In this document: piece after piece, positions 17,253 to 64,000 of the stretch | How the letters are laid out: each line of letters starts with the position of its first letter | Numbering within the stretch: the first letter of the stretch is position 1 | NCBI GenBank assembly: GCA_949775045.1 | Contig: OX459102.1 | Location: forward strand, 19,162,160 to 19,226,159 | DNA: 64,000 nucleotides | Direction: 5' to 3' | From: Metridium senile | Lineage: Eukaryota > Cnidaria > Anthozoa > Actiniaria > Metridiidae | Translations under genes and position numbers: made by a program | The notes under the pieces: model-generated | What the model saw: the letters and a program-made list of their open reading frames with translations, nothing else | What the model was told of the DNA's origin: nothing | Databases searched by the model: none

Positions 17253-17452
17253 ATGTTAGTGATAGATACATGTAGTTTCTATTTCACCATCTTCTCTGGT
17301 CGTGTCCTCTTGTCTCCCCTCCTTGCCAAAGGGCTAACCCAAGTAGTATTATTTCCATGTTAATGATAGATGGTGTTTCTATTTCACCATCTTCTCTGGT
17401 CGTGTCCTCCTGTCTCCCCTCCTTGCCAAAGGGCTAACCCAAGTAGTAGTAC
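17253..17452. repeat. Tandem 100-bp duplication covering the 3' end of the PDZ-WW gene
   Basis: Bases from about 17276 (TTTCTATTTCACCATC) recur at 17376 with few mismatches for about 80-100 bp. The inner copy encodes the last codons and the stop of the PDZ-WW gene. The outer copy lies in its 3' flank. Confidence 0.9.
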
Positions 17453-20400: not shown

Positions 20401-23400
20401 TCTTCCTTCTTCCGTTCTTTCACTTCCTCATCATTCATTCCAATGGTTTCTTTTCTTGGAGAACGTGGTGAGATTGGAGTGGAACAATATAGTGGTTGGA
20501 ACACAGCAGTATCTCCAGTTAAACGTTCTTGTAGTGGGGCAGTCGTTTCTTTTTTTCTCTCACTGTCTATGTCAAGTTGTGTAGTTTCACTTCCAAGACT
20601 TTCCGATCTAGTTTTCCTTCTAGGTAAAGGAACGGGACCTCTTCTCGCACGAGAATTGACCTCGACATCTTTCTTTTCTCCATTGCTTTCTTTCTTGTCT
20701 TTCTTCGATTTTGACAGACGCTTATCTGTATCACTATCTTCTTTCTCTCTGTCTTTGGTCTTTTTCAGCAATCTTTTTAATAAGTTACTAACGCTGTCTT
20801 TTACCTCGTGGACATCTTGTCTTTCTTCGTCGATGTTTGTGTTTTCTTTGCTTGATTTACTGACATTTGGTGTGCAAGAATCAGTGTTACCTTCAGCGTT
20901 ATTGTGAGGTAAAACGTTAAAGTAATCTTCCTGGGGAGAATCGTTGTTAACACAAATATGACCAATGTTTTCTTTAGCAGAAGCATTATCATCTTTAACG
21001 TACTTTATATCATCTTCCACAGAATCTGTAATTACAGCCGATGTAATTGGGTTGGTGCTATTCTCGCTATCGTAAACGTCTTTAACAGCATCAATCTTTC
21101 GATAATTACAAGCGTCAGATGTTTCAAAGGATAAAGCAGATCTTCCACTCGGTTGCGAATTGCATTCTCTGGCATTCTCTGACACTCCAGTTATGCAGGC
21201 TTTATTATCTTTTGCAACATTGTTCTCCTTTTTGATTTCGCCTTTCTGGTGATCCAAATCGTTACTGCCACCACCATCACCACCATCACCATCACCATCA
21301 CCAACATTATTATTATTATTATCATCATCATCATCATTCCGTGTACTAAGATGACGATGACGAACAACATATTTACCTGCATTATCTCTATTGAGATAAT
21401 CACCACTATTGCTCTCATAAACAGTACCAACAACATCATCATCGTCATGAACATTGACATCATTTCCATCTCCTTCAGGATCACTATCACTTTGGAGATT
21501 ACTAACATCATCGTTAACATTTCCTTGAACACTACCACCATTAGTACGATCATCACCGCCACACCTTGCATTACTATTGCTTACGTTTTCAGTACTTTCA
21601 TTTTGAATGGCATGTCTATTACCATCACCACCACCGTCGCCGCCATTAGCATTTCGATTTGCATCATCATCATCATCAACAATTGCAGCTGCAACAGGAT
21701 TTTCTTCGACAACATCAAATGATGCATCATCAAAGTCCTGGTCACCAACACACCCAGAATCCTCTGCAATGGTGCTGGCATTGATCAGATCATCATTGGC
21801 ATCATCATCATCTGCAGCAACATCACCATCTTCATCATCGTTATCATCATCGTTATCGTTATCATTATCGTTGTTATTGCCACCATAGTTCCGTTCTTCG
21901 TGGTCGTCTTCATCGATGTTGTGTCTGTTTTCATGATCATCGGAGTTGCTGTAATCTTCAGGAATACTTTCATTGCAGCCATCATCTTCATCATCATTAG
22001 TGTTATCGTATTTTGCACTGTTGGCTGCATCATTAGGAGCTTGGATATTATTACTTTCATCATCATGGCTACTATCAAAACTACCAATATCGTTATTCTT
22101 GCTATCATCGCCACAAACGGTATTGGTGTTATCATCAAAGACATCATCAGCATCATGCCTTTGATCATGATCATCGGCGTCATTCTTACAAACAACAATT
22201 ATGTCTTTCCCATGGCTAATGTCACCCGCAACATCTTCGCTTACGTTAAGATCATTTTTATCATAATTATCATTATCATCACCATCATCATCATCACAAC
22301 CACCAACGGCACCATCACCATCATCATTATCATGACCATCATTACCACCAACATCATCAACATTAGTTTTTGCAACAGCTTTCTTCAGATTATCATCACC
22401 AACATCATATTTTCCTTCATCATCACCATCACTACCACTAACATCAGCAGCAGCATTAATTTTTTCAACAACTCTCTTCAGTTTATCATCACCAACAGCA
22501 TCATCAACATCATCACCAACATCATCACCAACATCATCACCAACAACATCACCAACATCACCAACATCATCTACATTAGTTTTTGCAACAGCTTTCTTCA
22601 GTTTATTATCACCAACATCATCACCAACATCATCACCAACATCATCACCAACATCATCACCAACATCATCACCAACATCACCAACATCATCTACATTAGT
22701 TTTTGCAACAGCTTTCTTCAGTTTATTATCACCAACATCATCACCAACATCATCACCAACATCATCACCAACATCATCATCTCCTTCATCATCAACATCA
22801 TCACTGTTATCGTCATCATCCCAATTATTATCATTTCCCGAGACATCATTGCCTGCATTCTGGTCTTCCATAATTTTATCTGCATCTATGCGTTCATTGT
22901 TAATAAGTTTATCTCGATTTGAATCAAAGTCCATGTTCTCTGTAGAGTTCTTGCCATCACCATTTGAACTGCCATCCGTATCATCTCCCAATGGAGACGC
23001 TTTGGATATTCTTCCTGATCTATTCTCCATGTTGCCAATATCATCACCATCATCATCATCATCATCATCATCGTTATCATCACCATCATTTTCTGAACCA
23101 TTCCTGCAGACAACATGGTCAGTGGTACTCCTCTCATCGCCATGCTTGTGTTCGTCACGTGATTCCTGATGGATTTCTTTCTCACTGGTTTGTACTACAA
23201 TATTATTATCATTGAGAATTGCACCATCATTTTTGTGATCATTTTTGGATATTGTACAGTTCAATTCTTGTTTTTCATTTGGCAACACCTTGTTTTCACT
23301 ACATAAATCAACGTGTTCTTCTTTATCGTGGTCGCTTTCTTCACTATCATCAAAATTAAGATCCAAACTGCTGTCTGAATCAAAATTCACTTGGACATTC

Positions 23401-24731
23401 TTGCCACCCTCATTAGCATTGTAGTCTGTATTTGAATCACTCTTTGGCTGTATTTTCCTTACATGTTTAAGACTTGAATGACAATGTTGAGAACCCTTCT
23501 TTTCTTTCTTGCTTTGTGCAGCATTTGCTGTTTCAACATCACAACGCAAAACATTATTCTTTTCATCTTTTGTAAGTTCGATTTCCTCCTCATTCGCCGC
23601 CATTTTATCCTGCTTCCTTCCCTCACTTGTAAGTCTTTCATTCACATCAGAATCTTCTTCATTGTCTCCCATTGTAGCATTTTCTTGCTGTTTACTATAC
23701 GAATTCTCATTTCTAGCTTTTGGGATTTCTTTTCTGTTTTCATCTTCCTTAGTTGCTTCATACGTTTCTTTGTCAAACTCAGCTGTTTCGAGACTGTCCA
23801 CCGAAAAATCTCTACTTTCATTTGTTAGTGTAGTTTCGTTGAGAAAACTTCCACCTGTGGCTTCCGTCATAGTTGTTTCCTGAGTTTGTAAGTCTTCTAT
23901 TTCATCAGTTTGAATTTGGAATTCTTTTTTGTCATCGTTTTGTGAATCTGTAGAGTTTTCTTCCATCGTTTTACTCGCAGTTTCTTCACTCGCTTGCGTA
24001 TTCCTGATGAAACCTTTTTCCTTTTCTTTCCCAGCTAAAGCAACTGGGTTTCGCGATTTTGTATCTGTTGAAAAAGTTTTATTGTCATGAGAATTACTAC
24101 AGCTGATTTTGAATTAAAAATATTTAGATTTTTTTTGTTTATAATTGTAACAATAAAATAACGCGTTTGTGTTGCTCTGCAAATCAAAACATTCAAACTC
24201 AAATGATCTGTTTTTGTTCAGTTTAATATTTGCCGAAAGATATAAACTTTTATCACTTTATCTTTCAAACTATATGTATTTTTTTCAAAGAAATCAAAAT
24301 TGTAGTAAGTGCTTTGGAAATTCTATTTCTTTTTTTTCTTTATCTTCTACTAAAATACTAGTATAGTGTGGATTCGCATTGTACATGTTGATCAAAGCTC
24401 AGTGAATTAGTACAAAAAAAAAACTAATGTTAAACTGCTTTACTTCTCTCAAAAACACTACAATCTAAAGTGTACACTTATCAAGCAAATAAGTACAAAA
24501 TTGATATATTTAGAGGATTAATACAAGTGGATACAGACCTTTTGTTTGTCTTTGTTCTACATTGTTATGGTCTTCTTCGTCTTCATTCTTCTGATCTCGT
24601 GTTTTTTCAAAATCACCGAGAAGCTCGCAAATATCACCGAATTCTCCACTCTCAAATAACTGGCTACTTTCTAATGAACTATGTCTTGAAAGCTCGTCCA
24701 CATCGAAAGAAATGGATTCCTTTTCATCCAT
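17379..24731 (-). CDS. Giant acidic PDZ / coiled-coil / WW protein, STXBP4-like
   Basis: Two exons: 24731-24539 and 24064-17379. The first exon ends phase 1 and the second begins with AT, joining as D-T-K-S-R-N-P. This gives 2,292 aa and extends the frame 97 residues beyond the in-exon ATG at 23966. The donor GTCTGT is weak, so the join is probable, not certain. About 1,700 N-terminal residues are highly acidic, with D tracts and 40-aa repeats. A PDZ domain follows (about 1733-1814; RFPLSRQGPGIVLE, GRLRPGDRLLSINGYNL), then an EF-hand-like helical segment (about 1939-1990), a coiled coil (about 2030-2130), and a WW domain (about 2244-2275; PLPYGWQVAYT, FYMDHVTGTTTWVSP). This C-terminal order matches syntaxin-binding protein 4, which is only about 550 aa in human. 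Function of the acidic part is unknown. Confidence 0.8.
22345..22800 (-). repeat. Coding minisatellite, 120-bp (40-codon) period, acidic repeats
   Basis: Bases 22561-22680 and 22681-22770 match exactly at a 120-bp offset. Related KLKKAVAKTN modules occur at about 22360 and 22460. Between modules, a 12-bp unit gives DDVG repeats on the coding strand. The frame is kept because all units are multiples of three. Confidence 0.9.
23038..23092 (-). repeat. GAT microsatellite coding for an aspartate run
   Basis: ATC repeats on the plus strand encode about 15 acidic residues of the PDZ-WW protein. Similar tracts are at 19318-19396 and 21308-21338. Confidence 0.85.
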
Positions 24732-36048: not shown

Positions 36049-36258
36049 TCAAATTGCACCATCTTTGATGAGGAAGAAGACGGCCTCCAGACAGATCCTA
36101 GCGATCATATTGCCTGCTGTCGTTGTTATTTGCTCCTTGTAGTGTGGGTCATACTTCTCTGTCAACTCGTCCCCAACCTTGGCTAGTTCTATTGCCAACT
36201 GTTCTAACGTTTGTGTTGGGGCAGGCTCTGTTACACTGACTTCAGCTCTCTTGTCCAT
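36049..36258 (-). CDS. BH3-only-like small protein 1
   Basis: 69 aa. Residues 21-36, LAIELAKVGDELTEKY, fit the BH3 pattern: hydrophobic at -8, -4, -1 and +3 around G29-D30. The Y six residues after the D also fits Bak and Bim BH3 helices. Residues 51-64 form a short hydrophobic tail that could anchor in a membrane. There is no BH1 NWGR motif and the length is far below a Bcl-2 protein, so BH3-only is the best class. The ATG follows an acceptor (TTTTTAG, exon from 36272) by 14 nt. A 5' exon of about 105 nt ends at 36554 with a GT donor, and a TATAAAA sits upstream. Members bind Bcl-2 proteins to control mitochondrial apoptosis; that role is inferred here from the motif. Confidence 0.6.
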   Translation of the reverse strand: MDKRAEVSVTEPAPTQTLEQLAIELAKVGDELTEKYDPHYKEQITTTAGNMIARICLEAVFFLIKDGAI

Positions 36259-36553
36259 TGTTTAATAAATTTCTAAAAATACAAAAAAGGGAAACATGAT
36301 GAGAATCTTAAACCAAACTTTCTTTCCATTTGATTATTGTTAGGGTCATATTTTTGATGTAAATTTGCTTTCAAAATGATTTCAGTTTTAGAAGAGAAAT
36401 GTCATTTTGTGTATTTCCTGCTGTGGTTGAGTTAATATCTTTAAATAGAGGCGCTGTCCCGAAGTGAAAGCTACATCAGCAGGAGACAAATTTACATCGA
36501 AAAACGAAATTAAAACCAACATTGAATGTAACACAAGTAAACAAATGAATTAC

Positions 36554-36662
36554 CTTGTTGATCAGTAGCGTAATTTCCTTGATTTCGATTGGAATATCTC
36601 CCTGTCAGTCGATAGAATTAATCGTTCTTCTCCACTTGACTCGTGTACGATGTGATTTAAAG
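36554..36662 (-). other. Predicted non-coding exon 1 of BH3 gene 1
   Basis: The 3' end is a donor CAACAAG|GTAATT at 36554/36553. The 5' end is inferred about 28-30 nt from the TATA box. It contains no ATG. The intron to 36273 is 281 bp. Confidence 0.5.
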
Positions 36663-36689
36663 TTTACTGGACGCGATCAACATTGTTGC

Positions 36690-36696
36690 TTTTATA
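36690..36696 (-). promoter_or_regulatory. TATA box of BH3 gene 1
   Basis: TATAAAA on the minus strand (context GTTATAAAAGC), placed correctly for a start at about 36662. Confidence 0.6.
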
Positions 36697-36720
36697 ACAA
36701 CGCAGTTCTGCGAACATGAC

Positions 36721-39255
36721 TTACTTTCGATTCAAGAACACGAACACAGCTAAACTTGAATCACGGAATATATCCTCACGCGATGTTTGTGCTTTGTTTT
36801 GACCGAATCCTGGGTTTTCATTGGTTAAGAAACATGTATGTGCTGTCTGCGCGCTTTTGGAAACATGTGATTACTCACGCAAAAAAAAAGAGCCAACCAG
36901 AGGCGATTATCAGAAAGTCTAGACGCACCCTTTTTCGTCCCTAAAAGCACCAACTGGCTATCCTAAACCTCGATTAATTCCCTCCCACTATTAAATATAT
37001 CTAATATATTGAATATATCAAGTCTATAATCTTCGTTTTTAGTCGTTTTCGTTCCTTGCATTCAGGACGTGTTTAAGAAGTCTTTGTGTGCAGCGTTCTT
37101 GATTAGTACTTAGGACCCAGGGACGCGCCGTCGTACCGTCCAGGCACGTCCGGCTAGGGGATACCTAGTACTACCTCGGTCAGTCACGGAAGACTTTCAC
37201 ACTTCAATGTGCACGTGGCCGGCTATCATGTTTCATAAGTGACGTGTTTTTCAATGAACATATGTAGGTGTTTGGCGAATTATATAAACACGACCTTATT
37301 TTTTTGAAGAAGAAATACACAAAATGTTTACCTGTACACAGTTCGGGTTGTTGAGCAAGATTCTTTGTTTCAAACGGTTTGTTTCATCGTTCTCGACTAT
37401 TAGTGAATTGTAAAAATCGGACATGATCACAAATGATGCACTTTAATGAACAAACAGAAGTGTTTACCTGGAGTTATTTACCACAGCAATAATTACCAAT
37501 ATTTGTAAAAGAATTCCAGTCATAAACTGAAATATCAAAAATCGATCGTTTACGCCTTTCAAATAGCCAACATCATAGCAATGATTATTGGGATCAGATA
37601 GATTGTTGTGCAGTGTTCTCTGACTCAGTGTCAGAACTTCGCCGGATATGACCGAGAAAACAGGTGTATCAGTTCAGAAGAACAGATTGAACATTTTACC
37701 CAAAATAAATCGGCATCTGATCGCAATTTTAATATTATACTTTGTCTTCTTTTGCATGCATATTATAGAGCAGTTAACATGGACTGAGAAAGTGTATCCC
37801 AGTACGTTTTCATGAGAAGGTCTTATCTAACTGCAATTCTAGGATAGACTATGAATAAGGATAAACCCATTTTCAAAAGCCCTTTTCTAGCTGACTTATA
37901 CTTAGTTTGACGATTAGAATCTGAATTTAGTGTACATTTGATACGACTGAGTGTAGTATTAGCTTCCGATAAGACTGGGTAAAGACCTCCCGTATCATAG
38001 GCGTGAAACATTAACAAAACAAATTGATAATATTGGCTTTGTTTACGCTGTGAGTGCACTCATGATCCATGCATCCCGTAATTGACTGCAAACTGTTCTA
38101 ACACTGTATCAAGCACTAGAACTACTTGGAGTATTTAAATCAGTATTGCAAAAAATATTTGCATAAAATGTATTAGCGTGTTCCTTTTAAAGATTAAAAG
38201 TCTTTTGTTTAAATATCTTTAATAATGATATTTAAGAAATTTTATTTTTCAACAGTGAAATGGCTTGAATTCAGCACTAAATATCACGTTTTTGATCGAA
38301 AAATCGGATTATGTTTCATCAAAAAGTTCAATTTGTTAAAATAAACTTTAATCTTCGTAAAATTAACGATTTTTTATCGAGTTTTTGGTTCGTGAGCACT
38401 AAGTACTCTGCTTGTGAAACTGGTGAGTTTGTCGCCTCGGTTAGCCAATAGCGTTGCGAGTTGGAAAGCTGTGTTTAATTAGCCAATCAGAGCCTTGGAA
38501 ATAGAGAAGCTGTTTTTTTTAATAAACACAAAGCCGCCATTAACTGTTCGTGTTGGAAGAATAATTTACTCAAAACATGAGTTTATTTTATGAAAACTAT
38601 ATCGATTCTTTATTAGCAATTGAATCACACGTAATAAAGTTTGTTTCATAAATCTATTTGTAATTTTTATGCCAATCTATTTAAGTTTTTTCGATATTCA
38701 ATCGCTTAACTAACCCGAGATTAACCATAAGCCGATTTTGAGGCAATAAATGGCATTTAAGTAACTCCGTTCTCAAACACATCCCAAGCATAGTACAGTT
38801 TGCTATATATTATTGCTTTAAATTTCAGAGAATCGTTCCCGTGCGATCTCGACCAGAAAACAAAATGGCGGAGCCGATGATAACGCGTGTGAACACGCCT
38901 GCTCTTCTTGTCCTTTCTAACGGCACGGCAGAAACAACATATCAAAGCCAGGTTTGATTTAGTCATATGATTTTAAAATAAAACGAAAAAGCTGTTTTTA
39001 GGACATGATGATTATTGGTACCACTTGGAACTACAACTTTAGTGTTGCTTTCAGTCGATAATTTTGAAAAGCCGAAAAGCACGCGCAAACTGTCACGTCT
39101 GTCCAGTCACGGAACGGTACAGATTACAGTAAATCAACTCGATGATTACAGTATGGTTACCGCAAGGATTTAACGGCCAAAATTTACAATAAGAACTTGA
39201 AAACTCATAACACACTGAAAAAAACTCGCTATTTTGATCGCGAAACATCACCTAG
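36721..39255. other. AT-rich spacer between BH3 genes 1 and 2, left part
   Basis: No supported gene. A locally GC-rich patch at 37110-37200 can form a hairpin (TTAGTACTTAGG against CCTAGTACTA). Confidence 0.5.
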
Positions 39256-39257
39256 CA

Positions 39258-39660
39258 CAGAAATGGTGCGCTTACAGCACGGTACTAATGCCGGTCGAAA
39301 ATAAACTGAATGATCATTTGCACAGGACGATAAACCATACTAGAAAATTGCAAAATTGTTGGGACATTTTTTATGAGCGTTTTTGTCTGCGTTTCAAAAA
39401 ATATACAAAATGTATCAATTTGATTTGCAAACCCCCTTCCCCCCTAAGCAATGTTGATTGGTCTTTCAAATGACAACCGTTTCACATTCCCACAATTCAA
39501 CATTGACACGGGGGAGAGGGGGAAACGGAAAAATAATGTTGAAATATTTTTCATGTAAAAACCAGATAATGTCCCAAGGTATTTTGCACATGATTGTAGC
39601 CAGTTTGAATCATCCCTGTACCCTCCCTGTACCGCGATACAGCAGCGCGATAGGGACTAT
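39258..39660. mobile_element. Inverted-repeat element of about 400 bp
   Basis: Centred near 39476. CCCCCTTCCCCCCTAAGCAA pairs with the G-rich block at 39507-39525. GCAAAATTGTTGGGACATT pairs with AATGTCCCAAGGTATTTTGC, and CTTACAGCACGGTAC with GTACCGCGATACAGCAG. Confidence 0.75.
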
Positions 39661-41563
39661 TGGAACCAATAACGGTCAATCACTGTCACGCCACGACTCA
39701 ACCGATTTTTGTCATATTCACCGAATTGTGTTATGCGAAAGACAGCGCTAAATTTTCGGCCAAGCTTCGACAGGGTTACCGCAAAATACGTGGGTCATCG
39801 CGCCACAATTACAGTAAAGTTACACTGAGCAAGGATTTAAGCATCCCAATACAGGTCGAAATCCATGGTAAAAAAAAAACTCAGACGTCACTTCAAGGAT
39901 TTCTAAATACTCACTTTTTCTGACAATATATATGTCGTTAATGAACTGTCAATTTTTAAAATAAAATACATTTATATTGAAATATTTTATTAAATGATTG
40001 AATTCTATTGATTTTAGAGAAAAGACTTGAATGAACTATATAATTGAATAATCTAATGACAATAAAAAGAATATTAAAACAAGAGTATAAATCGACTTTT
40101 TCAGGAAATTTTAGGATTCTTTTCTATATTTTTTAGATGTTTAGTTGAACATTTTTTGGCAACGAATTAAAGATAAAATCGAAACGGTCACTCTCTAAAA
40201 GGTTATACATGACCGCAGCATTTAATTCCATTGTAAAAGTTATTTAAATATTGTTAAAGTATTACAAAATATTAAAAATAATTGCACTGGTAAAATGACG
40301 GTGCTACCAATTGATGCACAATAGCTCGAATTAACTAGAAAACGTCAATTTTCTACGTCATTTGTTGCTCAAAAGAACCTTTATTGACGTTTGAATCTAA
40401 ATTGGGTTGTTATTTTAACAAAATAATGATTTAAACATAAAACGTTTTTATTTTTATCTCAATTAAGACGTGTTGAAATGTGGTGAATGAGCTGAATGGG
40501 AAAAGACAAAGCTACATCATTTCTCGAATGCTTATTGGCTAGAATAAAGCCTGCAAAATCGATTAAAGATGTAACTCACGATTTACATTAAAAAAATTAC
40601 ATTTTGTTATATATCGTACATTTTTTCAATATGAAAAATTATTCTCTTTATATTTTAAATTACTATTTTTTATAATTATATATTTTAGATGTGATAATTC
40701 ATACATGTTTATATATCTATTACAATAATTTCTAACTAAAATTCGGCGTACTGTCTTTGCTCATTTTTTTTTGCCGTTCATGTATGTGGCTTCTATGCAT
40801 TTCATGAATTATAAAACTAAATAATCTTCCCACTTTATATCATCTATTTTATTGATAGTTATTTTCTGGCGAATTTTATTGTCTTTCTTGATAAAAGTTT
40901 GACGTTCTGAACTGTTCTCAGTTGTCCTGTTATATGTATAATATCTCCTTTAAACTACGTTACATTAATTGTCTTTTTAATTAGTTATCCATCTGCAAAG
41001 TTTATACACATTTCAGTGAACGGAATTTTCCGAACTATATTCACACAACATAATGTAGATATATTTGTTCCACTTCATTCAAGGTTGAGCTCTAGGATAT
41101 TTCCATGGCTTCAATCTTGTTATAGTTTCCCTCGCAAATTTGTTTGAGCATGAACATGAATTATTATATTGTTATAACTGCATCTTGCCATTCAGTGTTT
41201 ATAATATTCTTCTTTTTGTTAATTTCTTCTTAATTTTCTTTAAATTTGTTCGCGTGGAAATTTTCTCAGTATTACTGTACTGTTCACAATTTCTCCTTCT
41301 TTTCAGCAGTTTCGTACTGAATGATTTTATTGTTAAAAATTCTCTTCTGCTCCTCCAATTTCTTTAATTCGTTTATTGTAATATTATTTTTACTGTTCAT
41401 GGACGTTTACTTGAAGAATGCATCGCTTTTACTCTTTCTGTTTGTGAGATTTGGATATTTCGGCCATTTTGCTTTGTTTTCAGATGCAAGATTTCTCGTG
41501 GAAATTGTCATAATTTTTCCATAATATTGTGCACTTTCGCTGTTTGTCCTGCACACAAGTATA
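39661..41563. other. AT-rich spacer between BH3 genes 1 and 2, right part
   Basis: No supported gene or RNA. Short ORFs at 41140-41524 are phenylalanine/leucine-rich readings of T-rich sequence. Confidence 0.5.
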
Positions 41564-41569
41564 TTTATT
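41564..41569 (-). terminator. Polyadenylation signal of BH3 gene 2 (AATAAA)
   Basis: Canonical minus-strand AATAAA begins 28 nt beyond the stop of the 41597-41866 frame, supporting a real short transcript. Confidence 0.6.
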
Positions 41570-41596
41570 ACTGATATTATTGTTCCCACTTTAATC

Positions 41597-41866
41597 TCAA
41601 GTTGGCTTAACAAGCGAAAAACACACACAAAAGGCAATATTTCCAAACAGCCGCCATTTTCCTTTAGACAGTTCCTTTGAGGAGTTGTACTTCACCGTCA
41701 ACTGGTCTCCAACCAAAGCAAGTTGACTTGCTAGCTCTGTAATTTTAGTTTGTGGGATTCCTGTGCTTTCCAACGGCCGCTTTTCTTTGATACCTGTCTT
41801 TGTATATATTGTTAAAATGGCCAGCTTGTTGGAGCTATGGATGAAATTTCTCTGTATCTCAATCAT
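41597..41866 (-). CDS. BH3-only-like small protein 2
   Basis: 89 aa. Residues 45-60, LASQLALVGDQLTVKY, align without gaps to the BH3 segment of gene 1 (VGD-x-L, Y six residues after the D). A basic linker leads to the hydrophobic C-terminus 72-86. The ATG lies 8 nt inside an exon starting at 41873 after TTATTTACAG. The upstream exon ends at 42375 with a strong donor TTTG|GTAAGTAAG and is preceded by TATAAATA. Promoter, single 5' UTR intron, short frame and nearby AATAAA match gene 1. Outside the BH3 core the two proteins differ greatly, which is normal for this family. No other Bcl-2 homology is visible. Membrane anchoring and proapoptotic action are inferences. Confidence 0.6.
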   Translation of the reverse strand: MIEIQRNFIHSSNKLAILTIYTKTGIKEKRPLESTGIPQTKITELASQLALVGDQLTVKYNSSKELSKGKWRLFGNIAFCVCFSLVKPT

Positions 41867-42374
41867 TGATCACCTGTAAATAAGCAAAAATATGGAATTA
41901 GAATCTATACAATATTGGGAATTATATCAAAGTTAATTTTCTTCTTAAAAAAGATCAAATTATCAGTAAATTGTCGTATGATAATTCCGCCTTGTAATGT
42001 CAAAAACATTTTTCTCATTAACAGGTATTCTTTATTTATAGTACAAAATGACATAAATTGTCATAATGTTTGTACTTTTTATTGAAAAATAGTTAGTTTT
42101 CACTCTTATTGTCATGTACCAAAATGACTTATAATTTATAGACAAATTTTCATGCTATTCAATTAAGCAAAAACTTAACTCTGTCAGAAATATAAAATTT
42201 CTATCTAAATTACTACATGAATTAATGTAAAAAATGTCTTCAAAAACCAAGAATAACTTTTAAAAATTTCCTAAAAAGATTGCAAAGAGTTCCTTCACAG
42301 TTTCTTACAAATTAAACTTATCATTATTATAACAAATTGAGGATTTCTATCAAAAACAACAACGGCTTACTTAC

Positions 42375-42478
42375 CAAATATTCTTGCCTCTATTGAGGAC
42401 TACAAGTCAGCGTCGAATCCTTTGAAATCCTTTATAAACTCGCTTCTTGTTTCTTGTAGGACCGTTGTCTACGTATTG
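42375..42478 (-). other. Predicted non-coding exon 1 of BH3 gene 2
   Basis: Ends at a strong donor at 42375/42374. The 5' end is inferred from the TATA box. About 100 nt with no ATG. The intron is 501 bp. Confidence 0.5.
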
Positions 42479-42505
42479 ATTGTAAAATTCCGTCAGACTG
42501 TGTTA

Positions 42506-42513
42506 TATTTATA
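42506..42513 (-). promoter_or_regulatory. TATA box of BH3 gene 2
   Basis: TATAAATA on the minus strand, about 30 nt before the inferred start. Confidence 0.6.
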
Positions 42514-42579
42514 CTATGGATAGAGCAGGTTTTCAACGTGCTCTTGAATATTAAATATTACTGAGACTCACATGACTCG

Positions 42580-43460
42580 TACGTAGTATCGCGCTATGAT
42601 GCCATCCAAGGATCTGCAGCGGCGTGCTCACAATATTATAATTTAACTCAGCTAGATGATCAGGAATCGTGGTTACGAAACACATGAAATCATCGTCTTA
42701 ATGTGCGCGCGCGTCCATGCCACACACCCCTAATTTTGAACATACGCAATATTGTAGGGAGTCGCCATGGTCGTGTCAACATTGAGGACATGTACAAACA
42801 TTTCTGTTGACGAAATGATGGATAGAAAAGTGCTAGAAAAATAGGAATCTTCTCGAAATATGAACATTCAAGTTTTGTTTTTCCCGCATTGCAAAAAAAG
42901 AAGAGAACATAGAACACAAATGAAGAATATCAACCTAAACCGTTCTGTTGACAAAATGAAGAAATTGAAATACAGGAAACCTTTAATTTTCGAATTGAAA
43001 AGATTGTCGTGCATTGAGATTTAAATTTTATCTCGTTTTCAGTGCAAGAATTTAAACCAAACAGCAATACAAGTTTGTTTAGTAATTTATCAATAGCATT
43101 AATTTTTGTCCAACACATTTCCCGAATCCTTATATAGGAATGCAAGTTTGCCAATTTTACTTTGCCGAAGGTTACAATTTCAACTCTCGAAATAGCAAAT
43201 TTTGTATAAAATTAAACATTGGTATTTCAAATTGTTCAAGTTCTCTTGGTGCATGATTTTCTGAGTAGACGTTGTTTATACTGGATTGAATGGGGGTTTC
43301 AATACTAAGTAGACATTGTTTGTTGTTTTATAGATTTTGCTCTTGTTATCGCCATTATTGCAGCACGCGTATTCTCCAACAACGCCCTCCTTCTTTCCTC
43401 TTTTGTACACTAGCATGTACACATAACACTTTGTCGTAAAACACACAGGAAAAGCTATTT
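42580..43460. other. Spacer between BH3 genes 2 and 3, left part
   Basis: AT-rich with short ORFs only. Nothing recognised. Confidence 0.5.
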
Positions 43461-43770
43461 TTATTACAATAATAATGGAGAACTAAACTCTTATTTAGTA
43501 TATAAATTCCTTGAAAAATTTGCCTTGTAACAATGACAGGAACTCGTTTAAAATATGACAAATTTGACAATTGTTCCAAACAGACAAAAATATATTTATC
43601 GTACACAACACACAACACATAATACAACTTTTTTTATTAGAATAATTATAGAACAAAACTCTTATTGAGTACATAAATTCCTTGGAAAATTTGCTATACA
43701 ACAATGACAGCATCTCATTCAAAATATGAAAACTTTCAGCTAGTATAATTGTTTCAAACAAACAAACATT
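43461..43770. repeat. Tandem duplication of about 172 bp
   Basis: TATAAATTCCTTGAAAAATT (about 43500) and CATAAATTCCTTGGAAAATT (about 43672), with flanking AACTCTTATT and AACAATGACAG, repeat in direct orientation. Confidence 0.85.
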
Positions 43771-45877
43771 TCAATGTATGGTTGTGAAACAGTAGAATAT
43801 ATGGAATTGTTAATTTTCTAACTTTTCTTTAAAATCAACGAGAAAAAAATTGTTTGTTTTCAGTTTAATCTTATTTAGATTTTATGCCGTAAATTCAACG
43901 GCACTATCTGCAATTCTTTTTTAATCTGATTTTGATGATAGTGGAAATTCCACTTCTCAGCTTTCTGATTAAATAAAAAAACTATCTAACACAAACACTG
44001 TTCCCACATTTGACCGTTATTATAACTATGATTTTCAAGATAATCATTTTTCACTAGAAATTTCTAGATATAACTACAAGATGTAAATGTGAATATCCGT
44101 TTGAAATAAACTGGACGCAAATTGTCCAAATTATTCGAGATTTTTTCTCCGCACAAAATACCATTTAAAACGAGGTCAAAATCGCGCTAAAAACTCATTG
44201 TGACTGGAATGATTCCTATATCAACTCACTAACCGGTGTTTTAGCTATTTTACTAAGTTGTTTACAAGGTTTTTCGATTCATAACCACGTGTAACTGACG
44301 AGGGGTATTTGCACTTGTGAGGGCTGTTCGCTCAATATTTGATACTGTTAGTCAACCAATCAGAACTCGTGAAACACAACCACCTGCAATACCGTAGGGA
44401 TTCATGCAAAGATATCGATAATATATCATAATTCTGTTTTAATACTGCAGCATGTCTCAGCTTTTTGACAATTGCGAAGTAAAATGAGTTAATTAGAATG
44501 GGAACACGTTTTTTCAACATTTTCTAAGGTAAAGTCTCAAATTTTCAAACACTTTTTTAAGATGATTCATGCACACATAGCTATTGTATTGTCTATGTAA
44601 TACAGTAGCAACCAGTTGTTTATAAAGCTAATATTTGCTAAGCAAGTCAATGCTATTCTTTAACGTTTTCTTTCTTGCTTGTTAAGGGCGCAAATCCTCG
44701 CATTGACACAATTATTCATAGTTAAGCCAGTTGGTTAGTTGTATTATCTTTGTAATAAAAACTCACTTGTTTACGAGCAAATACATGCCAAGCAGGTCAT
44801 TGTTTTTGTATTTTTTTCCGGCAAATCTCTAAGCAAATAATAATACAAAAATCCACTAATATTTAACTATACTTCAAAATGTAGTTTTTCAGCTTTATTT
44901 ATCAAATGAATCGAAGAAAATTTCGGCTTTCTCGAACAATGAATGGGGAAATTATGACAATTACGATTCTGAAAAATTCAAATCTCTAAAAAAGAGAAAA
45001 AAAACTTTATCGTAAATTTGAGAAAAAAAATTAACAGTTTCAATAAACGCGTGCTTATCAAAAGAATAGAAAATATCAAAATTGACAAAAAATATTTCAA
45101 TAAGGCTTGAATAAGGAAAAGAAAAAAAAAAAAGTTTTCAAATTAAATATATCTAGCCCAAATAGTAAAAAAATCATTTTTCATCAAATGTTGTGAATGA
45201 TCAAGTTTTCAATAAAAAAAAAGACGTTTATCACAAATGTTGTGAACAACCAAAGCGTTTTTAATCAAAATTCTCGCTTATCAAAAGAATAAACTTATCA
45301 GTTATTCAAGATAAAACAAAAAAGAAAGAAAAAATCCAAGTGTTCAATGAGTTACTGTAGCCCAGTGGTATTACAATAACAGATAGCCAAAATTACTAGG
45401 TAAGAACTCACAATAAAAAGCTTTTTGCCAGCTGTTAAAACAGTTTTAAACTACACAGAAAAGGTCGTTTGTCACACATTTTAACCTTTCCCCATGTGTT
45501 TTTATTATTATTACAAGTGTTATATAATTTTTTATTTTCTGTAATTTTTTCCTATTTTTTTTCTGCTTTTTTACTTCTAATTTATCTATTTTAGCTTACG
45601 AAATCTTTATTCTTTATTTTATATTGAAGCTATAATAAGTGTTCTTTTTTCAATCTAGAATGCTCAGAAATTGTAAGTTCTAATTCTGGGGTGTTTATTC
45701 TGCAGAAATTCATCTGTAGAGTTTGCTTGTCCATGATCAAGATTTGCTCACGCTATGTAAACAACATGGCGGCCATTCGTTGTCCAGTCGAATCGGTTCG
45801 ACACCGTTACTAGCACAAACCAATAGTCCAAATTAACCCACAAATATCAGCAAAGTTTCTTCAATCCTCCTAAAACA
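43771..45877. other. Spacer between BH3 genes 2 and 3, right part
   Basis: AT-rich with A-runs. No gene, RNA or clear element ends were seen. Confidence 0.5.
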
Positions 45878-45883
45878 TTTATT
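45878..45883 (-). terminator. Polyadenylation signal of BH3 gene 3 (AATAAA)
   Basis: Minus-strand AATAAA about 71 nt beyond the stop of the 45954-46232 frame. An ATTAAA variant at 45935-45940 is nearer. Confidence 0.55.
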
Positions 45884-45953
45884 AGTCATTTGAATCGACT
45901 TTAACTGTACTGTTTTTGTTTGTGCTGATCAATTTTTAATCAGTTAAAAACAT

Positions 45954-46232
45954 TCAAGATGGCGAATCCAGAAGCACGAGAAGGGCCTGGAAACTAATAA
46001 TTGCAATTTCCCGCCATGAGAACCACGTGACTTTATTTGATTGACAATACGTGCTATTAAGTCCATCTCCTACTGCTTTGAGGTGATTGGATACGTCAGT
46101 GATACTTTGCGCATTGATATTGAGATTGTCAGAGAAGCTTTGCTTCCTGGCCTCTATCAAAGAGGCTTGGCTGCATAGCAAGTAGAATCCTACTTGAGAG
46201 GAACTCAAAGGCTGACCTTGACCTAGAGCCAT
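45954..46232 (-). CDS. BH3-only-like small protein 3
   Basis: 92 aa. Residues 47-62, VSNHLKAVGDGLNSTY, align gap-free with the other two BH3 segments, and the preceding I-T-D matches I-T-E of gene 2. A tryptophan-bearing hydrophobic tail (69-89; IAIISFQALLVLL) could insert in a membrane. The -8 position is V rather than L and the residue after G-D is G, so the helix is more divergent. The ATG is 20 nt inside an exon starting at 46251 after a good acceptor (TTTCTATTCCAG). The upstream exon ends at 46915 with AAG|GCAAGT, a GC-type donor. A TATAAAG lies at 46994-47000. Same orientation and layout as genes 1 and 2. Function is inferred from the motif only. Confidence 0.55.
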   Translation of the reverse strand: MALGQGQPLSSSQVGFYLLCSQASLIEARKQSFSDNLNINAQSITDVSNHLKAVGDGLNSTYCQSNKVTWFSWREIAIISFQALLVLLDSPS

Positions 46233-46914
46233 TCTTTGTTTACAAGTCTGCCTGGAATAGAAATAGACATTGAAAACAATGGCTGATAATTATGGCTGAA
46301 CACAAAGATGATATAAAGAAATTGAACCAAGTAAAAATGAGACTAAAAATGAAAATTCATTATCAAAATAACGTAAAAATGAAAATAATAATTTTGGAAA
46401 AAATATGTTAAAAAGGTTTAGTTTCAAAAAATGTTTTACAAAAAATAATAATATTGTAAGAGATATAATAAAAATAAGCAAAGAAAGTGGGTCACAAAAA
46501 AACCGGAAAATCTGCTGAAAAAATAATATAATTGATTGAAAAAACGTTTACGAAAAAATATACAACAGAAATCAGAAAATGAAAGTGTGATGAAAATTAT
46601 TTTAAGATAAATGTTATTTCTTGAGAAATCATCAACAATTTGATTGATAAACAAATTAGCGATTTGTAAGATAAATTGATTAATTTCGTAAAGTTTTGTT
46701 TTCCTATAATTTATTGTCTTCCGGCTAGGTTGATGTATCTAAAAGTCTTCCATTTCCGTCAACATTCTATATAACAAGCTGTAGTAGGAGGTAAGCTAGT
46801 AGACATTTGATTGCTCACTAAAAAACAAAGGTAAATAAAATATAAAGAGGACGTCGACAGTCAATATACTACAAAATACCAAAAATATCTAAATACAAAC
46901 TTGCCTTGAATTGT

Positions 46915-53522: not shown

Positions 53523-56500
53523 CTAAACAGGGGAAAACTCATCAACAGATATCTTAACCTTCTTCGTCTTTACGTTTAGCGGCAATTGCCTTCTAGACCC
53601 TATCCTCTCATTGGTTAGTTCAAGACTTGGGAATGATGACGTCATTGATGACGAAAAACGATTTTGAAAAACCGAACTCCGTGTTTGATTGGCTGTTTTG
53701 GCTCGATCACCGTTTGAAAACCGCGCATTAGAGTAAGGAGGTTTGGGCGACTGGCGAAAGGAGGCCGTTATCTCTTTAGAAGGCGACGTTTGAGGCCGCG
53801 TGTTGTGCAGACGCCGTCGTAAAAACTCGGTGTTCTCAAGTGTAGTTGAATTTACAGTTTGTGTCAAATCTGAATCGTATTTTTGTAGGTTTGTCTTACT
53901 CTGTCTTAACTCGTCAGCGTGGTCGTCAGTGGAATGAATGTCTCTTGACCGTGACAAACATCCCGTCACCACCAGGGACGGGTCATGGTTTGCACTCTTG
54001 TAGTTGTAGTAGTCATCCATTGGGCCAGCTATTAGCTGTGAGGTCGTGTTTAGTTCGTTATCTAGTAAGCACTGGTCACAGTTAGGTATGGTACAGTCCT
54101 GGTTTAACGATTCACTTAAAGCATGAAGTAAACACTGTTGGTAATCGGTGAAGTCCTGTGCGCAGATACGACCCTGCCATACCATATAACCTGAATCAAT
54201 GGATAAATAATAAATGATAAAACGAATGAACGGACGGATGATTCAAAGATTGAATAAATGGATGGATGAATGTATGTAAGTAGAGGTGAATGAGTGAACG
54301 AATTAATGCATGAATGAGTAAATAAATGAATGAATTGTGAATCAATAAATGACTGAGATAGGAAAAATGAAGGAAATGAGACGGAGTGAGTGAGGGCAGA
54401 GGTATGGAAAGAATGCATAAAGTAAAAAATAACCATAAACACTTACCATCGTGGTTGCAAAGCACTATGGTCGGAACACCAACAAGTCCGTACATATGAC
54501 AAACACTCCCCTTACTACCACCCCCTTCGTTGCGCCTTAACACAGACCGCTGTCCAACAGGATGGCAGCCACACAAGTGCTTCACATTATCTGTCAGCCA
54601 ATTATGTGATTTGAGCTGCGCATGAAGAGATTGGTGGTGACCGCTGACTAGCTGATTACTTTGAACACAGCACGTTATAAAATCCATCTGTTTTTTGAGA
54701 AAATAAAGTAAGTTGGTTATCAGTTAGCCACAGCTGGATAAATGATTCACTTTAAAATACATTGATTGGTTCGAAATAAAAGTACTTTTTATGACAAACT
54801 TACTTCATGGTTTTGACTGCGTGTAAACTCCATAAACATTTCCACGGCTTTGATGGATGAATGGCACCTGTCAATCAAACATTCAATGAGTTTTATAAAG
54901 ATGTTGGTAATTATTTGGCTAGTTACAAAGTCATTACTTCATGAATAAAAATGAGCAAGCAGGCAAGCAGGCAAGCAGGCAAGCAGGCAAGCAGGCAAGC
55001 AGGCAAGCAGGCAAGCAGGCAAGCAGGCAAGCAGGCAAGCAGGCAATCAACGTCATCATTATCACTTACCACATTGTCCAAAACAAAATAATTTGTGGTT
55101 TGTCACTTGATCCAATCAAAGGCTGAGAACAAGAATTCACGACATCCATAGCATAGCACACAGGGGAGGGGAGAGGCTTCCCAAGGGATCCCCTGTGCAT
55201 GTATATTTGTTTATTCTTGATTTCGTAAGTTAGATTATCTCCATAGCAACATCCACGTGACTTAGAGTGTACTCCAAAATAACAGAATTGCACGAACGGC
55301 AAAAAGTCTTTAGTTTGGAGGGTTACTTGGCTAGAAGGTGCGCTATGGCCGATGGGATGGCTAGTCAGGCTCTCCACAGTAATCACGTGATCGCTCGGAG
55401 AGGCTGGTAACTACAAGAGCAAAAATAGAAAAATACAAAATTGAATACTAACTTAAGACTTTCTTAAGTTAATACGCAAAATTTAATAACGTTATTTTAA
55501 AGCCGAACCTTCAAATTAACTTGCAAAGTATTGACGTCCAGCGGTTGTCCCTGTTTCTGATCATTGATAGAGACCTGGTAACCAGTAATTATTGCGTCAC
55601 CGTCGTCACGTGGTCTGGACCAGCTTAGCTCTGCAATCAGCGTCCCTAGTAGACATGATACAACAGCTAAATAACTTTGTAATATAATTTCGGTTAAACA
55701 CTCTTGAATATAGGTATGTTTTATAGCAAGTTGGATTAAAATCATCGATTGTTTGCGTCATTTTTCTTTATACTTAATGTAGACTGCAAAACAGTCCCTA
55801 TTTTTACGTGAAAACTCCAAATAAACCAGTTGAAATTCGATCAAGTGAAGTGTTGAGTGAGAAATAATGAATGATAGGCGAAGGGAAGTGGAGGAAAATT
55901 GAAAAAGACAACTCGCTATGAAGAATAATTTGCGCAAAAGCAATTACAGCTAGGGTGTTTATCAATCTAAAGAGTGAAAAAAGGCAGTTGACTTCAAAAA
56001 CCTTCTTTTTTGTCTCACCACTTATCTTATTGAATTCTATAATGTATACATTTTCTTGTTTTGTTGAAATCAAATAGACCTTTGAAAGCCTTGAATAACA
56101 TGTTTTGACTGCTTATTTTGGACCCAGCGATGTTTGAGTAATACCTGTATGTCTCTTGATGTCTTGTACACAGTTTCCAAGTTCAATGTCAAGGTTGCGA
56201 AGGGTGGCAAGGTTCTTTGTGATCTGTTCAAAAATGAATGTCAATCGATGTCACACTTTTCATTATTGATAGTATTTTGCGCAAACACATCTCTCTCCCC
56301 TGAACTAACGAAGGGTGGCAAGATTCTTTGTGATCTGTTCACAAATGAATATGGATGTCACACTTTTCGATTGACAGTGTTTTTCAACTGTTTTGCGCAA
56401 ACGCGTCTCTCTCCCCTGAACTAACGAAGGGTGGCAAGATTCTTTGTGATCTGTTCACAAATGAATATGGATGTCACACTTTTCGATTGGTAGTGTTTTT

Positions 56501-61800: not shown

Positions 61801-64000
61801 ACAATTTGAGTACCAAGGGAGGGTCCTGTCGGGGAATTGTCACCTCCAGTGGGTCTGATCGTGCTTCTTGAAAACTATTGGTTTGTTCGTCTTCTGAATC
61901 TGTGAGTTCAGTGTTCTTGATTGTGGAAACCTGAAAAACAGGTTATTTACTTGTTAAACAAGTTTTAGCGAAAACGTCGTTAAATTAAAACCAGAAAACT
62001 TGAATAGAATAGGATATAATAAAGTCTGGTCAGGAGCTTAGATTTTGTTCAGTTCTGAGTTTCATATGATGTTTGTATTAAATTCTATCTTGATTTCTAT
62101 ATACTATTCCAAACTGCATTTATTTCTACTATTCCTATAAACTACTCTGTTTATAAAACTACCGAAAATATACCTTTTTCTTTTTGCTTTCATTTCTCCT
62201 CTCTTTCCCGCCAGTATCACCCAAAGTAGTCATGACTACAAGATAGCAAGTGTACTTCATACCAGGCTTACATCTCTTTAAAATAAAGCTGTGTTGGTTT
62301 GGAGAGAGCCTGGTAACTATTCGCCCATTGGCTTCCAGTGTGTAGCCACTTATTTGTCGAACACGACCGCAGAGCTCTTGGTCTTTAGCTTGGAGAATAT
62401 CCTCTGGTTCTAGGATGCAACATAATACGAAACGTCTTACGAAGGAAGAAATAATTACACAAAGAAAAAAAGAAAATAGAAAACGGGAGAGAAAAGAAAC
62501 GATCCGAAATGAAGATCAAAAATGAAGAGAAGAAATGCAATGTAATGCGGTGCTAATATAGCGCTTTTAACAATGAGACTTAAGTGAGAAGTAGCCGGCA
62601 TAAGAGAACAGAGTTAAAACAAATTAGCAGATCATAATTGAGAAGGGAAATGAAAAAAAAAAGAGAATTGAAGAGCATAGAAGAGCATAGCGGAGAGGAA
62701 AGATACAAGAGAAGAAGTGAAAAGTGAAGAGAAGACAGAAAATATCCAACAAGTAACATACCAAGTTGGAGTGCAGTAGGTTTATTCCAGGAAATATGTA
62801 TCTGCGTTGCTGATAGTCCAGTTACCAATAGTTCAGGTTTACCAGGAGGTGCTATGGTACTCACAGTGATTGATTTGGACAGACAGTCCTGTGCAACAAG
62901 GGATACCAAGTCGCTTTCTGAGCTACCAACACTAGACCCTGTCTCATCTACTTCGTTTGTTTGTTCTTCAATGTCCTTACTTTCCCGATTCTCTTTGACT
63001 ACCGCTTCTACTATAATAGTGTATGTAACGCCGGGCTCAAGACACTTTATTTCACATCGTGGGCCCAGTAGCGAACCCTGCGGAACACTTATCGTATTGC
63101 CAGCACTAGAACCGCTGCCGTGTGGTGGACGACTCTTCTTCTCCATGTAGTGAACAAGATAGTGCAACACATAAAGATCTCCAAATGTTACTGCTGGTTG
63201 CCAGGCAACATGAAGAGAAAATGGCGTGCTTTTGGTCACGTGGAGATCACGTGGTCTCCCAACGCCACTGGTCCATGCCTTTATTGAACTACTGGTAGAG
63301 CAACTGTGTTGTTTCTCGTTCCCTTCTCCTTCACTGTAAGATGTACTGAATTTGAAGAGGTAATGTGTCTTGGAATCGAGGCTATGTATAGTATATGACG
63401 TCATATTTGGGTTGATGACAAAGCTAAGCGCCAATTTCAAATCATCATCTCGACAGTCAATCTTGTAAACATCGAGGTGTAGAAATTTCAAATTGTTGTC
63501 AGTGTCAAGTGAGTCCCACGTAAGGCAGATAGAACTAAGGGAACTGTATTCCACTTTGATGTTCTGAGGGGGGTAGGGTGGGGGTTTAGTATCAAACCAT
63601 TGTTTCTCCGATTTCGATACATTCCATTTCGAAACTCCACTTGTATAATTAGCATGGTCAGCAAATGCTTCTACAGTAACGGCGTACCTACTTGACGGCA
63701 ACAAATCAGTGACTTTCATATCTGTATTCTTTGTATCAAAAGACATGACCTGCATTTCTTCTAGTTCTTCGCTTTTAAACAACGTAACTTTAAAGCTCTC
63801 TGGTTTCACATTCAAAGGGCGTTGGCCTTCCTCACACGTGTCATCGCGTTCTAGAACGTTCCATCGCACATCAACAGCACAGCAACTTACATTGATTACC
63901 CTGACGTCACAAATCTTTTGCACAAGTCCCCATAAATGTAACGTTAGCCTTAACGATGGACCAAGGTTACCAGACGCTAATCGCCTATCAAGACCCATAC
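53523..64000 (-). CDS. Multi-fibronectin-III protein with C-terminal thioredoxin-like domain (5' incomplete)
   Basis: Twenty exons fit in phase: (64000)-62762, 62409-62174, 61930-61581, 61045-60970, 60511-60395, 60287-60208, 60126-59939, 59435-59380, 59107-58929, 58569-58485, 58384-58289, 57859-57686, 57480-57164, 56995-56926, 56223-56145, 55645-55509, 55410-55070, 54867-54804, 54687-54447, 54190-53523. From 63998 this gives 1,596 aa. About ten FN3 domains are visible (for example PPQNIKVEYSSLSSICLTW, PRDLHVTKSTPFSLHVAW, RVLVEWNEPKTYGIDTIRAY). A helical insert (about 56.2-57.0 kb) precedes the last FN3. Then comes a thioredoxin-like fold: KPQIILFWTMWCHSSIKAVE, and GVPTIVLCNHDGYMVWQGRI with the cis-proline. 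The active site is C-H-S-S, not CxxC. A polar Ser/Thr-rich tail ends at VDEFSPV. No transmembrane segment is seen. I do not recognise an orthologue. The donor at 55509 (GTTCGG) is weak. Confidence 0.85.
54957..55046 (+). repeat. 8-bp tandem repeat GCAAGCAG, about 11 copies
   Basis: Perfect copies in the intron just downstream of the 55070 exon end, only about 22 bp from its donor. Confidence 0.95.
56202..56544 (-). repeat. Three tandem 111-116-bp units duplicating an exon start
   Basis: GGGTGGCAAG starts units at 56202, 56313 and 56429. The first overlaps the true exon 56223-56145 (minus). The other two carry the same acceptor (GTGAACAG) and the first nine codons (ITKNLATLR), then a stop. 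Confidence 0.92.
56560..56794. mobile_element. MITE family A, copy 2
   Basis: CACCGCTGTACTATTT, GGCGCATTTGTACAGGCTAA, CGCTTAACAATAGAAAACAC and the right end GAAACTGGTCTATT match copy 1 at 16372-16610. The left end is degraded. Intronic. Confidence 0.9.
57515..57645 (-). repeat. ATC/ACC trinucleotide repeat with a 48-bp higher-order duplication
   Basis: ATCATCATCGACACCACCTCCACC occurs twice (about 57555 and 57591) inside ATC runs, between exons 57480 and 57686. Confidence 0.88.
58070..58115 (-). repeat. ATC microsatellite
   Basis: ATCATCATC run in the intron between exons 57859 and 58289. Confidence 0.85.
58615..58915 (-). repeat. ATC microsatellite tract reaching an exon boundary
   Basis: Nearly pure ATC between 58796 and 58862 with degenerate flanks. 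It fills the intron between exons 58569 and 58929 and ends about 15 bp from the 58929 donor. Confidence 0.9.
59517..59541 (+). repeat. AATC tetranucleotide tract, left of MITE copy 3
   Basis: CAATCAATCAATCAGTCAGT directly precedes the MITE; the same repeat resumes after it, so the MITE inserted into the tract. Confidence 0.85.
59542..59749. mobile_element. MITE family A, copy 3 (about 30-bp internal terminal deletion)
   Basis: AATAGACCAGTTTCATGTT at the left jumps directly to AAGGCGCATTTGCACAGG, lacking the ACCGCTGTACTATTT block kept at the right end (about 59721-59732). Inverted relative to copies 1 and 2. Confidence 0.9.
59750..59930 (+). repeat. AATC tetranucleotide tract, right of MITE copy 3
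   Basis: AATCAATC and AGTCAGTC words continue to within about 10 bp of the exon ending at 59939. Confidence 0.9.
60535..60745 (+). repeat. Degenerate GTCACATCAC/GTCATG tract
   Basis: TCATGTCA and CACATCACAT words recur between exons 60511 and 60970. No coding content. Confidence 0.7.
60776..60930 (+). repeat. 39-bp tandem repeat, about four copies
   Basis: CACAATCAAATTCACGAACG followed by CAGTCAACGCACGGCAAG repeats at a 39-bp period, so frames stay open on both strands. It ends about 40 bp from the exon end at 60970. Confidence 0.93.
61110..61575 (-). repeat. ATC/ACC trinucleotide tract filling a whole intron
   Basis: The intron between exons 61045 and 61581 is almost entirely ATC/ACC words with a duplicated block (TTATAGATATCATCATCGTC at about 61358 and 61472). 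Long frames here are low-complexity. Confidence 0.9.
61931..62173. other. Intron of the FN3 gene without features
   Basis: AT-rich intron between exons 62174 and 61930. Nothing recognised. Confidence 0.6.

What the first reader, a model, noticed from the sequence alone, without database searches (positions are those of the whole stretch)
36049..46232. Tandem cluster of three BH3-only-like genes on the minus strand
Three short frames (36049-36258, 41597-41866, 45954-46232) each carry a gap-free alignable BH3 core: LAIELAKVGDELTEKY, LASQLALVGDQLTVKY and VSNHLKAVGDGLNSTY. Each is followed by a hydrophobic tail. All lie in one orientation, 4-6 kb apart, in an otherwise gene-empty 20 kb. BH3-only proteins are normally scattered genes; a tandem array suggests lineage-specific expansion of apoptosis initiators. 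The motifs are seen; the apoptotic role is inferred from the family.
Basis: partly seen in the sequence, partly recalled or inferred. Interest (0 to 1): 0.92.

Follow-up and report, generated by a model that had tools for sequence, protein, structure and literature searches.

The report
Three clustered BH3-only-like genes, sea anemone
A stretch of what is probably sea anemone DNA carries three side-by-side short genes that look like old duplicates and whose proteins each contain a BH3-type "death switch" helix, a plausible but untested cluster of cell-death initiators of a kind already suspected in this animal group.

Summary
Three minus-strand frames (69, 89, 92 aa) lie at the stated coordinates and hold the only strict-pattern BH3 matches in six frames of 64 kb. 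On a profile of 12 recalled BH3 peptides they score 18-21 bits; the next window site scores 9.6, and the known BH3s, each left out in turn, score 7-36. They look like old paralogues: p1-p2 and p2-p3 beat all of 5000 shuffles (p1-p3 is weaker, 10 of 5000), and all three share one layout: acceptor-like site, ATG, BH3, hydrophobic tail, stop. No BH1 or BH2 site was found. BicD similarity points to a sea anemone. Frames 1 and 2 recur in other contigs; no distant relative was found. Best reading: three BH3-only-like genes, each one coding exon behind a 5'-UTR intron. Candidate BH3-only proteins are already published for cnidarians, so this is a new member of a known kind; the tandem layout is the new part. 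Splicing, expression and the apoptotic role are inferred; the tails are weak evidence (20 of 78 ORFs, these three included, have one).

The parts
36049..36258 (-). Frame 1 (p1), 69 aa, BH3-only-like coding exon
   Evidence: 96% identical database protein P0001 with an in-frame 3-residue gap
36151..36198 (-). BH3 core of p1, LAIELAKVGDELTEKY
   Evidence: 19.8 bits; within a predicted helix, residues 18-36, low confidence
36067..36111 (-). Hydrophobic tail of p1 (residues 50-64)
   Evidence: KD mean 1.83; predicted helix 46-65, low confidence
36273..36288 (-). Splice-acceptor-like site, 14 nt before the ATG
   Evidence: 11 of 13 pyrimidines; 1.1% of 2549 window ATGs do as well
41597..41866 (-). 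Frame 2 (p2), 89 aa, BH3-only-like coding exon
   Evidence: 88 of 89 residues identical to P0002
41687..41734 (-). BH3 core of p2, LASQLALVGDQLTVKY
   Evidence: 21.2 bits, best of the window
41606..41650 (-). Hydrophobic tail of p2 (residues 73-87)
   Evidence: KD mean 1.81
41874..41889 (-). Splice-acceptor-like site, 7 nt before the ATG
   Evidence: 10 of 13 pyrimidines; 3.8% of 2549 window ATGs do as well
41564..41569 (-). AATAAA, 28 nt after the p2 stop (possible polyadenylation signal)
   Evidence: background density 1.7 per kb
45954..46232 (-). Frame 3 (p3), 92 aa, BH3-only-like coding exon
   Evidence: no database protein found for it
46047..46094 (-). BH3 core of p3, VSNHLKAVGDGLNSTY
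   Evidence: 18.1 bits
45963..46007 (-). Hydrophobic tail of p3 (residues 76-90)
   Evidence: KD mean 2.05
46252..46267 (-). Splice-acceptor-like site, 19 nt before the ATG
   Evidence: 11 of 13 pyrimidines; 1.1% of 2549 window ATGs do as well
45878..45883 (-). AATAAA, 71 nt after the p3 stop (possible polyadenylation signal)

Best explanation
Three old tandem paralogues in a (probable) sea anemone genome, each with a 5'-UTR intron and one coding exon, encode small BH3-only-like proteins: a variable N-terminus, one amphipathic BH3 helix, a short linker and a hydrophobic C-terminal helix. Most likely mechanism (inferred): the C-terminal helix places the protein on the mitochondrial outer membrane or ER, and the BH3 helix enters the groove of the animal's pro-survival Bcl-2 proteins (or of Bak/Bax), releasing or activating Bak/Bax when the gene is induced by stress or development. 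Shown: frames, motif, paralogy of p1-p2 and p2-p3, shared layout. Inferred: splicing, expression, membrane targeting, Bcl-2 binding, apoptosis.
For: Only strict-pattern BH3 hits in 64 kb; BH3 PSSM ranks 1-3, with 8.5 bits between the third and the fourth site, inside the leave-one-out range of 12 known BH3s, 7.1-35.6 bits. Profile of the three against all PDB chains: 38 hits at E up to 10, of which 35 are labelled BAK, BIM (BCL2-like 11), BIK or BID and 1 is a 'dF3 peptide'. Paralogy: SW p1-p2 63 and p2-p3 62, 0 of 5000 shuffles each; p1-p3 39, 10 of 5000. Identical BH3 residues with different codons: 6 of 11 (p1-p2), 5 of 6 (p1-p3), 5 of 6 (p2-p3). Acceptor-like sites before all three ATGs. 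No donor of 7 of 9 or better after the BH3 in any of the three frames. No BH1 or BH2 site: best 9.2 and 6.9 bits, against 39.8-52.7 for the recalled peptides that made the profiles. Predicted helices at BH3 and tail of p1 (mean pLDDT 66.5). Cnidarian BH3-only genes are reported to lack introns (PMC8998228, figure legend).
Against: No Pfam family reached its cut-off in the three frames; the best was a bacterial Isd linker for p1 (E 0.001, 19.6 bits against a cut-off of 27), and the same Isd proteins top the PDB list of p1 (E 0.057), just ahead of BAK (E 0.065). The best PDB hit of the three-frame profile is a designed coiled coil (E 0.0017); each Bcl-2-family hit is individually weak (E 0.05-2) and many are near-copies of one BAK sequence. 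p2 and p3 searched singly met no Bcl-2 protein in the PDB. No distant homologue at E up to 10 among 107 candidates. Codon scores are no better in frame than out of frame for p2 and p3, and barely so for p1. Hydrophobic tails are common in window ORFs. AATAAA is 722 nt from the p1 stop. P0001 reads through the p1 stop by 11 residues, so the C-terminus is not fixed. The acceptor score was devised after I had seen the sites. No expression data.
Confidence: 0.72

Rival explanations
1. The frames are exons or duplicated exon remnants of a multi-domain Bak/Bax-type Bcl-2 protein, not BH3-only genes.
For: BAK peptides are the most frequent named relatives in the PDB searches; the alignment of p1 with the BAK chain 6mcy runs on past the core to TAGN. 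The p3 tail is the second-best site for a BH1 profile in the window, at only 7.7 bits.
Against: No BH1 or BH2 site in the window; the stop comes 29-33 residues after the core in all three; no good donor after BH3. Residue by residue the nearest recalled BH3 is BIM for p1 and p3 and BAK only for p2. A Bak exon could still be their evolutionary origin.
Confidence: 0.12
2. The proteins carry a helix that only resembles BH3 and act outside apoptosis, for example as small membrane-anchored proteins or through a BH3-like short linear motif used elsewhere.
For: BH3 is a short motif that recurs in unrelated proteins (recalled); the designed coiled coil was the top profile hit.
Against: All four hydrophobic positions, the small residue and the Asp are kept in all three copies (sequences); identical residues are mostly kept through codon changes.
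Confidence: 0.1
3. Chance frames or decayed pseudogenes in intergenic DNA.
For: Codon scores not frame-specific; tails not distinctive; no distant relative found.
Against: 0 of 100 shuffles have a third site near these scores; paralogy and codon changes; shared acceptor-like sites; open frames 1 and 2 recur in other contigs.
Confidence: 0.06

Closest known systems
BH3-only proteins of vertebrates (BIM, BIK, HRK) and nematode EGL-1
   Same: One BH3 core with the h-x3-L-x2-h-G-D-x-h pattern; small protein; C-terminal hydrophobic helix as in BIM, BIK and HRK (recalled).
   Different: No similarity outside the BH3 was detected; no Pfam match at cut-off; three copies side by side. Binding untested.
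Candidate cnidarian BH3-only proteins (HyBH3-only 1-4 of Hydra, PMC10192318; Nematostella and Acropora among the species in the legend of the figure of potential BH3-only proteins, PMC8998228)
   Same: Same phylum if the anemone placement is right; no intron seen within the coding frame; BH3 the only BH motif found.
Drosophila reaper-hid-grim-sickle (RHG) cluster at 75C (PMC5034548, passages read)
   Same: A cluster of pro-apoptotic genes that share a short motif.
   Different: RHG proteins act on IAPs, not on Bcl-2 proteins; the region is 272 kb against about 10 kb here.
BAK BH3 region
   Same: Most frequent named match in the PDB.
   Different: No BH1 or BH2 in the window.

Membership tests
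BH3-only proteins | BH3 core with four hydrophobic positions, small residue and invariant Asp | tested here: met
BH3-only proteins | No BH1, BH2 or Bcl-2 fold | tested here: met
   BH1/BH2 profile scan of the window from recalled peptides; no Bcl-2 model among Pfam hits of the three frames at E up to 1. BH4 not scanned separately.
BH3-only proteins | Match to a described BH3-only sequence family in Pfam | tested here: not met
   no such family among hits at E up to 1; those families are narrow and mostly vertebrate (recalled), so this is a weak criterion
BH3-only proteins | BH3 forms a helix that binds the groove of Bcl-2 proteins | tested here: inconclusive
   helix 18-36 predicted for p1 at low confidence; binding cannot be tested here
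BH3-only proteins | Pro-apoptotic activity | not testable with these tools
   needs expression in cells
Tail-anchored BH3-only subgroup | C-terminal membrane helix | tested here: inconclusive
   hydrophobic tails present but 20 of 78 window ORFs, these three included, reach that level
Multi-domain Bak/Bax | BH1 and BH2 after BH3 | tested here: not met
   (window only)

The most novel reading that the evidence does not exclude
A dedicated death-initiator locus in an anthozoan: an ancient tandem array of BH3-only genes, perhaps born from a Bak BH3 exon and kept together for shared regulation, the Bcl-2-pathway counterpart of the insect reaper-hid-grim cluster.
Probability: 0.3. Interest if true: 0.72.

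Novelty: new member of a known kind. Interest (0 to 1): 0.52.

Why it matters
BH3-only proteins have little sequence conservation and are hard to find by similarity; a survey of metazoans reports 'potential' ones in several invertebrate groups and asks for experimental confirmation of those from echinoderms (PMC8998228, abstract, section 2.4 and passages). A cluster whose copies support one another by paralogy gives a stronger handle: three related but diverged BH3s to test against anemone Bcl-2 proteins, and a locus to look for by synteny in corals and anemones, where apoptosis is discussed in connection with heat stress and bleaching (PMC4715348, passages).

Tried and rejected
Fourth copy: the next PSSM site, 38413-38460 minus (9.6 bits), has no ATG between the preceding in-frame stop and the motif, and no hydrophobic tail before the next stop (translation); rejected. 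Bak/Bax exon set: BH1 and BH2 scans found nothing. Rfam and tRNA scans of the window: 0 hits. DNA similarity of the three loci: one 27-bp match in the frame 1/frame 2 core (E 0.004); the other matches have E 0.18 or worse. Codon-usage score: p1 2nd, p3 4th and p2 6th of 24 ATG ORFs listed between 24.5 and 53.5 kb (6th, 17th and 20th of all 78), but not specific to the reading frame. Mollusc origin, my first guess for the literature search, was dropped after the BicD search. Searches for a published tandem BH3-only array (terms tandem, tandem duplication, gene cluster, tandemly) listed 6, 6, 0 and 1 papers, none of which describes one as far as listing and passages show; the 'tandemly' in the one hit stands in a reference title on myxoma virus genes.
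Full report
WHAT WAS CHECKED. The three frames exist exactly as described: 36049-36258, 41597-41866 and 45954-46232, all on the minus strand, 69, 89 and 92 aa. I call them p1, p2 and p3.

ORGANISM. The window is animal DNA. A Bicaudal-D coding ORF at 5546-7342 (Pfam BicD, E 4.3e-104) has unnamed relatives at 83-92% identity and, as its nearest named ones, Nematostella vectensis (74% identity over 98% of the query) and Actinostola sp. (88% over 77%); the named stony corals follow at 63% (66% over 58% for Desmophyllum) (the best 120 of 221 hits were listed, and only the 8000 candidates sharing most words were scored). I infer a sea anemone; the species is not known, and that the first two are sea anemones is recalled.

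IS THE MOTIF MORE THAN CHANCE? A strict BH3 pattern hits only these three sites in six frames; a looser one hits p1, p2 and 7521-7556. A PSSM from 12 recalled BH3 peptides gives 21.2, 19.8 and 18.1 bits, next 9.57; 100 dinucleotide shuffles never gave a third site above 11.78, though one best site reached 20.34. With each known BH3 left out in turn, the 12 score 7.1 to 35.6, so the three lie inside the real range. In 150 further shuffles 12 sites reached 15 bits, none of the 12 in an ATG ORF of 60 aa or more. Independently of my peptides, the profile of the three frames searched against all PDB sequences returned 38 chains at E up to 10: 35 are labelled BAK, BIM, BIK or BID, 1 is a 'dF3 peptide', 1 is serine palmitoyltransferase and 1, the best (E 0.0017), is a designed coiled coil. 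Each Bcl-2-family hit is weak on its own (E 0.05-2) and many are near-copies of one BAK sequence. p1 alone met BAK at E 0.065, just behind a bacterial Isd protein at E 0.057; p2 and p3 alone met no Bcl-2 protein. Among the 12 recalled peptides the nearest is BIM for p1 and p3, BAK for p2.

ARE THEY PARALOGUES? Smith-Waterman scores: p1-p2 63 and p2-p3 62, reached by 0 of 5000 shuffles each; p1-p3 39, reached by 10 of 5000. Among 1466 pairs from the 55 of 78 ATG ORFs that passed an entropy filter, the two high scores rank 4th and 5th; the three pairs above them were not examined, but their ORFs overlap tandem repeats listed. At identical residues of the BH3 core the codons differ in 6 of 11, 5 of 6 and 5 of 6 cases: protein kept while DNA changed. 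Beyond one 27-bp match in the p1/p2 core, no DNA match between the three loci is better than E 0.18, so the duplications look old. A recent expansion is therefore not supported; an old expansion within anemones is not excluded.

GENE LAYOUT. Before each ATG, at 14, 7 and 19 nt, is an AG with 11, 10 and 11 pyrimidines in 13 positions; of 2549 window ATGs, 1.1% reach 11 and 3.8% reach 10 (the score was devised after the sites were seen). The stop comes 33, 29 and 30 residues after the final Tyr of the core (counted on the translations). No donor of 7 of 9 or better lies after the BH3 in any of the three frames; AATAAA follows the p2 and p3 stops at 28 and 71 nt, but p1 only at 722 nt (ATTAAA at 117 nt). 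[quoted passage not shown] No BH1 or BH2 site is in the window (best 9.2 and 6.9 bits; the recalled peptides that made the profiles score 39.8-52.7, an in-sample figure). Against: codon scores are no better in frame than out of frame for p2 and p3 and barely so for p1, and tails of this hydrophobicity occur in 20 of 78 ATG ORFs, these three included. For p1 AlphaFold2 gives helices 18-36 (BH3), 40-43 and 46-65 (tail) at mean pLDDT 66.5 on a three-row alignment: compatible, not proof.

RELATIVES. Frame 1 is found at 96% identity in P0001 (in-frame absence of three residues near the N-terminus, core unchanged, Trp at the place of the stop and 11 more residues in all); frame 2 at 88 of 89 residues in P0002. 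These come from assemblies without organism names and may be the same or a close species. The profile search with all three frames met only these two at E up to 10 among 107 candidates; frame 3 was not met. That search needs shared 5-residue words, so absence says little. The window's own genome could not be searched (ten unanswered calls).

MECHANISM. From established knowledge of the family (recalled): BH3 helices bind the groove of pro-survival Bcl-2 proteins and can activate Bak/Bax. Anthozoans have the partners: 11 multi-domain Bcl-2 proteins in Acropora millepora with Nematostella counterparts listed, and eleven family members reported for Nematostella (PMC4715348, passages). A cluster of three could give separately induced initiators with different partner preference; that is conjecture.

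COMPARISON. Hydra has HyBH3-only 1-4 (PMC10192318, table passage), and Nematostella and Acropora are among the species in the legend of a figure of potential BH3-only proteins (PMC8998228: passages and section 2.4; figures are not held). The kind is thus known in the phylum. What I did not see in print, in searches (listings, plus passages of the papers cited), is a tandem array; the library lacks most subscription papers. The nearest layout I know is the insect RHG cluster (PMC5034548, passages), whose products act on IAPs instead.

VERDICT. Observation confirmed; BH3-only-like reading likely (0.72); tandem paralogy well supported for p1-p2 and p2-p3; apoptosis untested.

Noticed in passing
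17379-23966 minus: A 2195-aa ORF with a PDZ and a WW domain (syntaxin-binding-protein-4-like by recalled layout) and a long Asp/Asn-rich stretch with VGDD repeats in its N-terminal half.
   Followed up: partly
62580-63998 minus: Fibronectin type III ORF (Pfam fn3). Further minus-strand frames at about 55.5, 60 and 61.6 kb look like parts of the same gene by eye only; it would bound the BH3 cluster upstream.
   Followed up: partly
2174-2365 plus and 10316-10558 plus: Exon-like pieces of a Ras/Rab-type GTPase (Ras model E 1.3e-12) and possibly of an Arf-like GTPase (E 0.035, below the cut-off).
   Followed up: partly
45972-46022 minus: The tail of frame 3 is the second-best site in the window for a BH1 profile (7.7 bits, far below real BH1), a faint hint that the tails could derive from the Bcl-2 helix-5 region.
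   Followed up: no
36049-36051 minus: The database relative P0001 has Trp where frame 1 has its TGA stop, so the C-terminus of this gene varies between sequences.
   Followed up: partly
54955-55046: Perfect 8-base tandem repeat (GCAAGCAG, 11.5 copies, 100% matches).
   Followed up: no
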